Below are positions 43,957-46,955 of a stretch of DNA of 48,134 nucleotides, piece by piece (position 1 is the first letter of the stretch; each line of letters starts with the position of its first letter). Below the pieces are notes generated by a model. The model was not told the DNA's origin, searched no databases, and was given only the letters and a program-made list of their open reading frames with translations. The stretch is taken from positions 1 to 48,134 of the forward strand of contig CAIQHB010000044.1 of NCBI GenBank assembly GCA_903871465.1, read 5' to 3'. Source of the stretch: an uncultured Methanosarcinales archaeon (GTDB lineage: Archaea; Halobacteriota; Methanosarcinia; Methanotrichales; Methanotrichaceae). A program made the translations under genes and the position numbers.

Positions 43957-45060
43957 ATGGCAACCATCGAGGAGCAGATTAAGGCGCTGGAAGAGGAGAT
44001 CTTTAACACTCAGAAGAACAAGGCCACTGAGCATCATCTGGGTAAAATCAAGGCCAAGATCGCGAAGCTAAAGGCGCAACAAGAGCTTCAGAAGATCAAG
44101 GGCGGAGGAGGAGGCAGAAGATACTACATCAAGAAGTCCGGCGATGCAACCGTGGCCCTGGTGGGGTTCCCGTCTGTGGGAAAGTCCAGCCTGCTCAATT
44201 ATATGACCAACTCCAAATCGGCGGTTGCCGATTACCAGTTCACTACCCTCGAGGTCATTCCGGGCGTCATGAAATACAAAGGCGCCGAGATCCAGATACT
44301 GGATATGCCGGGCATCATTAAAGGTGCGGCGAAGGGCAAAGGAAGAGGCAGAGAGGTCATAACGGCAGCTCGCGCGGCAGACATAATATTACTACTGGGA
44401 GATGTATTCAACTACAAGCTGAATATCCTGGAGCGCGAGCTCTACGACGCAGGCATCCGGCTGAATCGGCAGCCTCCCAACATTCACATCACCCAGGAAA
44501 AGAAAGGCGGCATAATCGTGCGCAGTACGGTTCAGCAAACAAACATGACTGATTTCGAGATCGCAGAGATCATCCGGGCTTATGGCATAGTGAACGCCAA
44601 CGTCACCATCCGCGAGGATATCGACACGGATAGCCTGGTTGACTTCCTGGCCGGCAACAGAGTATACATTCCTTCGGTGGTGGCCATAAATAAGTTCGAT
44701 CTGCGGTACGGAGGCGTCGAGAACAAGATTAGAGAAGAGCTAGGCCGAGACTATCTTCCGGTATCTTGTGCGACATATGAGGGTTTGGAGGAGCTGAAGG
44801 ACCAGATTTACGAAAAGCTGGGCTTCATTCGTGTCTACCTCAAACCGAAAGGTGGCAAAGCGGATCTGGAAGAACCGCTGGTGCTCCTGGATGGAAGCAA
44901 TGTTAAGTCGGTCTGTGAGCATCTTCATCGTGACTTCGTGAGTCTCTTCCGCTATGCTCTGGTTTGGGGGAAGAGCGCCAAGTTTCCCGGCCAATCGATA
45001 GGTTTGGAGCACGAACTCAATGACTGCGATATATTATCCATAATCACGAAGAGAAGGTAA
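43957..45060 (+). CDS. DRG-family GTPase
   Basis: A 367-residue Obg/DRG-type GTPase. An N-terminal helical hairpin (EEQIKALEEEIFNTQKNKAT) and a glycine run precede the G domain: G1 GFPSVGKS (70-77), G3 DMPG (116-119), G4 NKFD (245-248), with an inserted S5D2L-like region after DMPG. A C-terminal TGS domain follows (GFIRVYLKPKGGKADLEEPL, FPGQSIGLEHELND). DRG proteins act on ribosomes during translation and are universal in archaea and eukaryotes. GAGG lies about 9 bases before the ATG, after the leader hairpin. Confidence 0.95.
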   Translation: MATIEEQIKALEEEIFNTQKNKATEHHLGKIKAKIAKLKAQQELQKIKGGGGGRRYYIKKSGDATVALVGFPSVGKSSLLNYMTNSKSAVADYQFTTLEVIPGVMKYKGAEIQILDMPGIIKGAAKGKGRGREVITAARAADIILLLGDVFNYKLNILERELYDAGIRLNRQPPNIHITQEKKGGIIVRSTVQQTNMTDFEIAEIIRAYGIVNANVTIREDIDTDSLVDFLAGNRVYIPSVVAINKFDLRYGGVENKIREELGRDYLPVSCATYEGLEELKDQIYEKLGFIRVYLKPKGGKADLEEPLVLLDGSNVKSVCEHLHRDFVSLFRYALVWGKSAKFPGQSIGLEHELNDCDILSIITKRR

Positions 45061-45176
45061 GCAAGGCGCAATTTTAGCGGCAAGTCACAGAACCCGGGTC
45101 AATCCATTGCCAAATGCGCCCTGTTGAGGATGCGAAAATGGTATGGTCGGACATCAGCCATCTTTTTAGGGTTGAT

Positions 45177-46415
45177 AATCATTGTGATTTTATTCGCGGG
45201 GTAAAGGGGTAGAGAAGACCGCATCCTTTAGGTTGCGGATGAATCGTACCCCTTGTATAACCACCAAAAAACTATAAATCTAATAAAAGTCCTTAACATC
45301 TATTAACATGTACCGCACTATCAAAATAAAGCTAGATAAGTCTAATGAACTCATCCAGACAGCTCGGCTTTGGAATGCCGCCTGTCAGGATGTCATAGAC
45401 TACGGCTTTGCGGCACATGATTACAACAAAACCAGACTTAACAAGGCTACATACAAAGACCTCCGACAGAAGTATTCTACGCTGCCTTCCGCTCTTCTCC
45501 AAACCGCGAGGGATCAGGCCAGTGATATGCTCAAGAGGCTCAAATTTGAGAAAAAGCCTTTCAAGCATCCTTTCGGAGCGGTCAGATTCGACGTTAGAAC
45601 CATGAAAGTATTCTTAGAATCGGGATACTGCAAGCTCACAACAGTTTTTGGAAGACTGCGATATGACTTTCAATTAGCAAAATACTATGAGAAGTATGCT
45701 ACATGGAAAGTCATGAATGCTCAATTGAAAATAACCAAGAATGCGTGTTACCTTAATGTTCAAGTAGATCAACCCGACCCCGAAATAATTGCAGGGGATA
45801 AGAGGATTGGCGTAGATCTTGGAATCAATAACATAGCTGTATGTAGCGACAATACGTTCTGGCAATCCGGCCCAGTCAAAGCGGTCAAAGGCAAATATCA
45901 ATATTTGAGATCTAAAATTCAGTCCATAGGCACTCGATCAGCTAAAAGGAAGCTTCAAACCCTTTCAGGTCGAGAGAGACGGTTTCAGAAGGACTTGAAT
46001 CACCAAATCGCAAACTGGATAATATCTAAACCATATGACGTAATCGCTCTGGAAGATCTAACTCATATCAGGAACGGTAAGAAGAATAAGAAGCTTGGAA
46101 AATGGAGCTTCGCAGAACTACGAAGCATTGTAGAATATAAAGCGGCTGCTATCGGGAAGAAAGTAGTTGCCATATATCCAAGATATACTTCTCGGACATG
46201 TTCTAAGTGTGGGTTTCAGAAGAAAGAAAACCGCAATGGTAGAACTTTCAAATGCAAGAGATGTGGCTTCCAGATCAATGCAGATTTGAATGCGTCCAGG
46301 AACATCGCTACCTTCAGTAGAGCTGACCGTAGTAGGCTGCCTGTCAACCAGCCAATCGTAGCGAGCTAACTAATCATCAGCTACAAGCCCCGGCCTTTAG
46401 GCGGGGGTAGTTGAC
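45177..46415 (+). mobile_element. IS200/IS605-type (IS1341-like) element carrying tnpB only
   Basis: The ends can be placed from the ISDra2 rule: the left end follows the target TTGAT (45172-45176) and the right end closes with TTGAC (46411-46415), giving 1,239 bases. Each end has a subterminal hairpin with a TTTA loop: CCGCA-CC-TTTA-GG-TGCGG at 45219-45238 and CCCC-GCC-TTTA-GGC-GGGG at 46388-46406. No tnpA is present, so movement would need a TnpA in trans. The borders are inferred by analogy. Confidence 0.75.
45308..46369 (+). CDS. tnpB: TnpB RNA-guided nuclease
   Basis: A 353-residue TnpB with all RuvC residues visible: Asp170 (IGVDLGINNIAV), Glu249 (VIALEDLTHI) and Asp326 (INADLNASRNIA). 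The zinc knuckle C298-C301-C316-C319 lies in CSKCGF and CKRCGF. TnpB is guided by the element's right-end RNA to cut DNA next to the TAM, which favours retention of the element. The N-terminus MYRTIKIKLDKS is complete. No frameshift was found, so it may be active. Confidence 0.93.
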   Translation: MYRTIKIKLDKSNELIQTARLWNAACQDVIDYGFAAHDYNKTRLNKATYKDLRQKYSTLPSALLQTARDQASDMLKRLKFEKKPFKHPFGAVRFDVRTMKVFLESGYCKLTTVFGRLRYDFQLAKYYEKYATWKVMNAQLKITKNACYLNVQVDQPDPEIIAGDKRIGVDLGINNIAVCSDNTFWQSGPVKAVKGKYQYLRSKIQSIGTRSAKRKLQTLSGRERRFQKDLNHQIANWIISKPYDVIALEDLTHIRNGKKNKKLGKWSFAELRSIVEYKAAAIGKKVVAIYPRYTSRTCSKCGFQKKENRNGRTFKCKRCGFQINADLNASRNIATFSRADRSRLPVNQPIVAS

Positions 46416-46435
46416 GCAGATCTGAGTGACAACGA
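46270..46435 (+). ncRNA. Predicted right-end guide RNA (omegaRNA/reRNA)
   Basis: In known TnpB systems the RNA scaffold covers the 3' end of tnpB and the right end, and the guide is the sequence just past the element. Here the right-end hairpin is at 46388-46406 and the guide would begin at 46416 (GCAGATCTGAGTGACAACGA). The 5' border is arbitrary. Confidence 0.5.
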
Positions 46436-46574
46436 TTTCAGATTTTGACCAACAGTTTTATAAATTAAGTCGTCCTTTATACGATGCTGCATTGCGTCGA
46501 TCAAAGTGATTTGTTGAGATGTTTTCTGTGGCAGTTTCGATTCTTTGAATCGATTCAAAAGGTACGTGAATTAA
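46416..46574. promoter_or_regulatory. Spacer with TATA and a palindromic leader before the small zinc protein
   Basis: TATA-like TTTATAAATT (about 46456) and CTTTATACGATG (about 46476) precede a perfect 7-bp stem TCGATTC-TTT-GAATCGA at 46537-46553 in the leader of the next gene. Confidence 0.4.
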
Positions 46575-46781
46575 ATGTTTGAGCGAAAATATGAAAACAG
46601 TGGTAGTAGCAGCAGCAGCAGAGGCGGCTACAATAGTGGTCCGAGAGAAATGACAGATGTCACTTGTTCAGAATGCGGGAAGCAAACCCAGGTTCCCTTC
46701 AAGCCGGATGGATCTAGGCCGGTTTACTGCAGTGAGTGCTATCAGAAGCACAGACCTGCCAGGGCACCCCGAAGATACTAA
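46575..46781 (+). CDS. CxxC-x-CxxC small zinc-binding protein
   Basis: A 68-residue protein with a Ser/Gly-rich head (NSGSSSSSRGGYNSG), then DVTCSECGKQTQVPF and VYCSECYQKHRP, two CxxC knuckles. This CxxC plan with an intervening FKPDGSRPVYC turn is common in archaea and candidate-phyla proteins, often annotated as a small zinc-binding protein; it may bind nucleic acid. The basic tail RPARAPRRY supports that. Confidence 0.85.
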   Translation: MFERKYENSGSSSSSRGGYNSGPREMTDVTCSECGKQTQVPFKPDGSRPVYCSECYQKHRPARAPRRY

Positions 46782-46825
46782 GCTGATTTGATTATTATTA
46801 TAATCGATCTGTTTTAATTTGACAG

Positions 46826-46842
46826 CGTCCGCAACACGGACG
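46826..46842 (+). other. Perfect inverted repeat in the spacer after the small zinc protein
   Basis: CGTCCG (46826-46831), loop CAACA, CGGACG (46837-46842). A second GC-rich region follows at 46852-46875. It is either a terminator or a short structured transcript; there is no T-run right after the stem. Confidence 0.35.
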
Positions 46843-46955
46843 TAAACAGGACGCGGGGCGGAAACTCGCACCGCGTAAATTTTTAAACTCATCGCCGCAT
46901 GGCGCGGCTCTTTGAAAAGTTGGAATTATTGGCACGGGCTGAATGGAGCGACAAA

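What the first reader, a model, noticed from the sequence alone, without database searches (positions are those of the whole stretch)
45172..46435. Complete TnpB-only element with definable ends and guide
TTGAT and TTGAC borders, matching hairpins with TTTA loops and an intact RuvC triad let the element and its guide (from 46416) be predicted directly. The predicted TAM is TTGAT. It is a ready natural case of RNA-guided retention without TnpA.
Basis: partly seen in the sequence, partly recalled or inferred. Interest (0 to 1): 0.56.

Follow-up and report, generated by a model that had tools for sequence, protein, structure and literature searches.

The report
TnpB-only jumping element with guide RNA
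This is an ordinary but well-preserved archaeal mobile element that carries only the RNA-guided DNA-cutting protein TnpB; its right end and guide were called correctly, but its left end and target motif are TTTAT, not TTGAT.

Summary
Window 45194-46415 (1,222 bp) is an intact tnpB-only (IS1341-type) element of the IS200/IS605 family in a Methanothrix-group archaeon. The right end (TTGAC, 46411-46415) and the guide starting at 46416 are confirmed: 14 of 15 relatives in unrelated flanks lose homology exactly at 46415. The claimed left border TTGAT (45172-45176) is wrong. The border is TTTAT at 45189-45193, 17 bp on. Empty sites of two sister copies read TTTAT|flank with no duplication in 8 of 14 pairs examined. 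The DNA guide AAGA beside the left hairpin fits TTTAT and not TTGAT under the IS608 pairing rule. The predicted TAM is therefore TTTAT. The protein has the RuvC D-E-D triad and is under strong purifying selection (median Ka/Ks 0.065, 55 pairs). The 3' end folds as a conserved reRNA whose hairpin-loop GTCAAC pairs with the terminal GTTGAC. No copy carries a transposase gene nearby (0 of 33). The genome's only detected Y1 transposase has a 72-bp in-frame deletion. The family was probably spread by TnpA in trans. It is a new member of a known kind.

The parts
45189..45193 (+). Left cleavage site / target motif TTTAT (predicted TAM), stays in the left flank
   Evidence: Start of homology with sister copies, same motif at sister left ends, present at the junction of empty sites of two sister copies, fits DNA guide AAGA
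45194..46415 (+). The element, 1,222 bp
   Evidence: Both borders from comparison with copies in unrelated flanks
45204..45254 (+). Outer stem of the left end (AAGGGGTA 45204-45211 with TACCCCTT 45247-45254)
   Evidence: DNA fold, z = -2.0
45215..45218 (+). Left DNA guide AAGA, predicted to pair with TTAT of the left cleavage site
   Evidence: Pairing rule of IS608 checked
45219..45238 (+). Left subterminal hairpin CCGCATCC-TTTA-GGTTGCGG
45308..46369 (+). tnpB, 353 aa, RuvC D170/E249/D326 and two CxxC zinc knuckles
46307..46415 (+). reRNA (omega RNA) scaffold: hairpin 46307-46333, hairpin GGCTG/CAGCC 46335-46353 with loop GTCAAC 46343-46348, stem GTAGC 46358-46362 / GCTAC 46380-46384, right hairpin, pseudoknot GTCAAC/GTTGAC. 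5' end not determined
46384..46387 (+). Right DNA guide CAAG, predicted to pair with TGAC of the right cleavage site
   Evidence: 30 of 30 right ends scanned obey the rule
46388..46406 (+). Right subterminal hairpin CCCCGGCC-TTTA-GGCGGGG
46411..46415 (+). Right cleavage site TTGAC, last five bases of the element
46416..46431 (+). Predicted guide (about 16 nt; to 46435 if 20 nt): GCAGATCTGAGTGACA
   Evidence: Follows from the right border and from ISDra2 and S. islandicus TnpB (passages)

Best explanation
An IS1341-type (tnpB-only) member of the IS200/IS605 family, inserted 3' of TTTAT between a DRG-type GTPase gene and a small CxxC-protein gene in a Methanothrix-group archaeon. TnpB is expected to bind the RNA made from the 3' end of its own gene plus the right end. 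The next ~16 nt (46416 on) would act as guide, and the RNP would cut TTTAT+GCAGATCTGAG, that is, the empty site left when the element is excised or an allele that lacks it, so that repair from an occupied copy restores the element. The element is not cut itself, because the guide is preceded by TTGAC there. Excision and insertion must come from a Y1 TnpA in trans, which reads the ends through the DNA guides AAGA and CAAG. Shown here: borders of the family, empty sites of sister copies without duplication, guide code, reRNA fold conservation, intact triad, purifying selection, no tnpA in the copies. Inferred: transcription, RNA-guided cleavage, the TTTAT TAM, restoration, and mobilisation in trans.
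For: Family models and PDB relatives Cas12f/TnpB. Right end at 46415 in 14 of 15 copies. TTTAT at the junction of empty sites: G021 copy against G010, and G008 copy against 7 genomes including the window's own (8 of 14 pairs examined). IS608-type pairing rule: TTTAT/AAGA fits and TTGAT/AAGA does not; 30 of 30 right ends fit. Among 40 left-end candidates scanned, GAAGA never goes with TTTAA and GAAGT never with TTTAT. reRNA: 33 pairs, 97.3% of cells paired, covariation score reached by 0 of 500 shuffles. Ka/Ks 0.04-0.19, median 0.065. No Y1 gene in the window or 32 loci, 4 of 4 positive controls found. Internally deleted copies that keep both ends, e.g. 272 bp in L066 and two more, L068 and L069, suggest that the ends suffice for movement.
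Against: The window's own empty site could not be found. In the window the base after TTTAT is missing relative to most sisters (TTTATTCG against TTTATCTCG), so the exact cut could be off by one. In 6 of 14 empty-site pairs the junction was gapped, held another insert, or was unclear. The single-sequence RNA fold is only weakly better than shuffles (z = -1.64); the support is comparative. Pseudoknot pairs never vary within the subfamily, so covariation does not test them. No expression or activity data. TnpB-only genes of Sulfolobus islandicus lacked the overlapping reRNA transcript that its IS605-type genes have (PMC11043419 section 6), so a tnpB-only copy may be silent.
Confidence: 0.85

Rival explanations
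1. One reading: the left border and TAM are TTGAT (45172-45176), like ISDra2.
For: A TTGAT stands just upstream of the real border; TTGAT is the TAM of ISDra2 (passages).
Against: Homology never reaches it (0 of 31 rows); sister copies and empty sites show TTTAT; the A at the 4th base from the foot of the left DNA guide pairs with T, not G.
Confidence: 0.03
2. A decaying relic: TnpB is no longer active or mobile in this genome, and what looks like function is inherited from recent active ancestors.
For: Single copy; the genome's only detected Y1 TnpA lacks 24 codons; several relatives hold fragments only.
Against: ORF, triad, zinc ribbon, both ends, both DNA guides and the reRNA fold are all intact. 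Pairwise Ka/Ks of the window copy to 10 others is 0.05-0.09, though this mostly averages over the whole tree.
Confidence: 0.2
3. A TnpB captured by the host for another task, such as gene regulation or defence against incoming DNA, no longer a selfish element.
For: Strong purifying selection without tnpA; sits upstream of a small CxxC-protein gene.
Against: Nuclease triad intact, not lost as in regulator forms (recalled); copies sit at unrelated loci in different species, so there is no conserved host context; the guide is the flank, with no other TTNAT+guide target in the own genome at up to 3 mismatches.
Confidence: 0.05

Closest known systems
IS605-type TnpB7 element of Sulfolobus islandicus (PMC11043419; section 6 and passages read)
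   Same: Archaeal; 5-base AT-rich target TTTAA is insertion site and TAM; right end ends in TTCAC and the guide follows directly; reRNA overlaps the 3' end of tnpB
   Different: Carries tnpA; TTTAA/TTCAC against TTTAT/TTGAC here. The same S. islandicus genome has tnpB-only genes without the reRNA transcript. Elements with TTTAA left ends or TTCAC right ends also occur in relatives of this genome (L089 with tnpA; others)
ISDra2 of Deinococcus radiodurans (PMC8612924 and PMC10097598; passages read)
   Same: Single-strand insertion 3' of a 5-mer without duplication, reRNA with pseudoknot using the last bases before the guide, RuvC nuclease
   Different: Has tnpA; TAM TTGAT; TnpB of 408 aa against 353
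IS608 of Helicobacter pylori (PMC5934647; passages read)
   Same: Cleavage sites read by tetranucleotide DNA guides 5' of the subterminal hairpins; the same pairing scheme fits both ends here
   Different: Has tnpA; TTAC / TCAA sites
IS1341 group of bacteria (PMC9956272; passages read)
   Same: tnpB alone between left and right ends, about 1.25-1.4 kb in the short class
   Different: Archaeal; that paper says it is unclear whether such elements are autonomous or decayed copies
omega RNAs of Halobacterium (PMC12558985; abstract and section 3.3.3 read)
   Same: Pseudoknot between the loop of the second hairpin and the transposon-encoded motif, and a right-end hairpin
   Different: Other lineage; expression shown there, not here

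Membership tests
IS200/IS605 family, IS1341 (tnpB-only) group | tnpB between left and right ends, no transposase gene | tested here: met
   (0 of 33 sequences with Y1; 4 of 4 controls)
IS200/IS605 family, IS1341 (tnpB-only) group | Subterminal hairpins with adjacent DNA guides complementary to the cleavage sites | tested here: met
   rule from passages
IS200/IS605 family, IS1341 (tnpB-only) group | Insertion 3' of a short fixed motif with no target duplication | tested here: met
   For sister copies. For the window copy itself no empty site was found
IS200/IS605 family, IS1341 (tnpB-only) group | Transposition by a Y1 TnpA in trans | not testable with these tools
   Only indirect: movable copies without tnpA, Y1 genes in most host genomes
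TnpB RNA-guided nuclease | RuvC D-E-D triad and zinc ribbon | tested here: met
TnpB RNA-guided nuclease | reRNA from 3' end of tnpB and right end, with pseudoknot to the last bases before the guide | tested here: met
   Sequence and fold conservation only, no RNA data:
TnpB RNA-guided nuclease | RNA-guided cutting next to a TAM equal to the left cleavage site | not testable with these tools
   Predicted TTTAT

The most novel reading that the evidence does not exclude
A lineage of TnpB-only elements, seen so far only in Methanotrichaceae, that has kept an active nuclease and guide RNA over the split of genera without carrying a transposase. It would persist mainly by TnpB homing, that is, cutting alleles without the element next to TTTAT and being copied in, while TnpA passes through these genomes only now and then. 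Its last bases TTGAC would serve three codes at once: DNA guide pairing for TnpA, the reRNA pseudoknot, and not matching the TAM so as to avoid self-cutting.
Probability: 0.2. Interest if true: 0.55.

Novelty: new member of a known kind. Interest (0 to 1): 0.3.

Why it matters
Whether tnpB-only elements are autonomous lineages or decayed IS605 copies is stated as unclear in PMC9956272 (passage). This subfamily gives a concrete case: defined ends, a corrected TAM prediction (TTTAT), natural empty sites for sister copies, retained selection on TnpB, short derivatives with only the ends, and a host whose only detected TnpA looks broken. It also shows that borders guessed from a familiar motif (TTGAT) can mislead by 17 bp, while the TnpA guide code gives a quick check.

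Tried and rejected
Rfam scan of 44900-46900 gave only sub-threshold matches on the minus strand (HEARO 22.9 bits against gathering 83; isrJ 22.7 against 37): treated as chance, no family for this reRNA. Sigma-70 and terminator scans were at the shuffle level. The window's own empty site: DRG-gene loci of relatives were read and TTNAT+guide searched in 60 genomes; not found. Joined flanks of 12 sister sites were searched in 38 genomes, six sites per search; of 14 pairs inspected, 8 were clean, L133 has another insert at the junction, and L135, L138, L148, L174 and L177 were gapped or unclear. Of the 12 sites only 2 were resolved (G021C39, G008C319). A transposase with the exact TTTAT/TTGAC pair of ends was sought by the right-end pattern GGTAGTTGAC in the fetched loci: none of the Y1 loci L085-L113 or L002 matched; related left ends with TTTAT occur on Y1 loci L105 and L106. 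Literature: searches; no paper in the held library combined TnpB, transposon-adjacent motif and TTTAT, which does not show that none exists. Structure prediction was not run, since family models already settle the fold.

Full report
What was checked. The ORF 45308-46369 (353 aa) is TnpB by NCBIfam (NF040570, 170.6 bits over a cut-off of 100) and Pfam, with PDB relatives among Cas12f and TnpB. The triad D170, E249, D326 and the two CxxC knuckles are in motifs shared by the 12 ORFs compared, apart from substitutions outside the acidic and cysteine residues.

Relatives. The DNA of the element is single-copy in its own genome; two more distant TnpB relatives lie at C52 and, as a fragment, at C73. 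Of 60 genomes searched (own included), 44 hold some TnpB relative, and 11 hold copies or fragments at 80% identity or more (my count from the rows, whose list is cut: G000, G007, G008, G009, G010, G012, G015, G020, G021, G026, G027). A scan of genome contigs gave 19 loci, 18 from records titled Methanothrix, Methanosaeta, Methanotrichaceae or Methanocrinis and one from an 'uncultured archaeon'. So the host is a Methanothrix-group archaeon (inference from kinship labels and those titles).

Right end. Fifteen homologous right ends in unrelated flanks were aligned; 14 stop at 46415 and one at 46416, where a chance G extends the match. The border TTGAC|flank and the guide start 46416 are confirmed.

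Left end. The BLAST query began at 45161, but none of 31 rows starts before 45187. The sister copies read TTTATCTCG..., TTTATCTTG..., TTTATATCG... and the like, with CTTAT and TCTAT as single-base variants. The window reads TTTATTCGCGGGG, so the motif is 45189-45193 and the element starts at 45194. TTGAT at 45172-45176 is flank.

Empty sites. Flanks of 12 sister copies were joined in a script and searched in 38 genomes, six sites per search. Of 14 pairs inspected, 8 are clean: the G021 copy against G010 (ACTATTTTAT|AAAGGTG) and the G008 copy against seven genomes, one of them the window's own genome at another locus, all reading TTTAT at the junction. No base is duplicated. Six pairs are gapped, carry another insert, or are unclear. 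The empty site of the window copy itself was not found.

DNA guide code. In IS608 the cleavage sites pair with tetranucleotides at the foot of the hairpins (passages of PMC5934647: GL AAAG with CL TTAC, GR GAAT with CR TCAA, A16:T-3, A17:T-4; the foot pairing with base -1 is my reading of these sequences). With this rule TTTAT fits AAGA (45215-45218) at all three tested bases, TTGAT fails at base -3, and TTGAC fits CAAG (46384-46387). Over 30 right ends found by pattern, CAAG goes with TTGAC in 23, GAAG with TTCAC in 6, AAAG with TTTAC in 1: 30 of 30 complementary at the free base. Over 40 left-end candidates, 27 have foot GAAGA (21 with TTTAT, 1 CTTAT, 1 ATTAT, 4 without a recognised motif), 11 have GAAGT (10 TTTAA, 1 without), and 2 others look like chance matches. 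The copies are related, so these are not independent counts.

reRNA. The last 150 nt of 21 copies were aligned. RNAalifold gives a right hairpin, a stem GTAGC/GCTAC and GTCAAC/GTTGAC pairing. With the named structure, 97.3% of cells pair, 23 cells have changes on both sides against 8.6 in shuffles, and no slid version comes near. GTCAAC lies in the loop of hairpin GGCTG/CAGCC and pairs with the element's last six bases; [quoted passage not shown] ISDra2 structure passages). Those pairs never vary in the subfamily. Three of four more distant TTGAC-type relatives keep a GTCAAC (L015, L017, L022; L020 has GTCAAT), while TTCAC types show no GTGAAC.

Selection and mobility. Over 11 full ORFs, 55 pairs, Ka/Ks is 0.04-0.19 with median 0.065 (the Methanocrinis copy McrA, close to McrB, was left out). 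No Y1-like gene lies in the window or in 32 loci of the subfamily, while 4 of 4 positive-control loci were found (some loci overlap and some are contig ends). Short copies that keep both ends but no tnpB exist, e.g. 272 bp in G021 (L066), L068 and L069. Y1 genes or pieces occur in 39 of 60 genomes, including 10 of the 11 with this subfamily. The window's genome has one: a solo IS200-like gene whose left end begins TTTATTACATCGGGAG, but it lacks 72 bp in frame against four relatives, removing the N-terminal strand. A full tnpA+tnpB element with related ends but TTTAA/TTCAC borders is in G011 (L089).

Reading. The best account is an IS1341-type element whose TnpB-reRNA would cut TTTAT+guide sites and so restore or copy in the element, moved by TnpA in trans. 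Cleavage, TAM and mobilisation are inferred. The closest studied case is S. islandicus TnpB7 (TTTAA TAM, UUCAC before the guide; section 6 of PMC11043419); that study also found its tnpB-only genes without reRNA transcripts, which is a caution here. Interest is modest: a clean new member of a known kind with a corrected target motif.

Noticed in passing
L193-L208, also left ends in L041, L067 and L002: A double hairpin (GTTAACTCGCGGAGTTAAC then GGGAGTTGCGACGAAGTCGCAAC, with variants) is grafted at the same place, before AGGATGA, in left ends of TTTAA-type, TTTAT-type and IS200-type elements in 5 of 41 genomes (16 hits; reversed-pattern control 0). It looks like exchange of left-end parts between IS groups.
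   Followed up: partly
L002 (own genome C62:7160-7474): The only Y1 transposase detected in the own genome has a 72-bp in-frame deletion of its N-terminal strand and a right end TTTGAC where relatives have TTTGAT.
   Followed up: yes
L133 (G020:C50) at the site of the L066 short copy: The orthologous site holds another short insert that resembles a left end of the same family in reverse orientation: perhaps repeated use of one site.
   Followed up: no
L139-L145 junctions: The insertion motif TTTAT is part of TTTTATA-like sequence some 40 bp upstream of a gene start, resembling an archaeal TATA box; 7 of the 14 right flanks listed begin with A (TTTATA). Insertions may favour promoters.
   Followed up: no
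window 46575-46781: Small CxxC-x17-CxxC protein gene (TIGR04272) right downstream of the element; similar DNA occurs at several places per genome in this genus.
   Followed up: no
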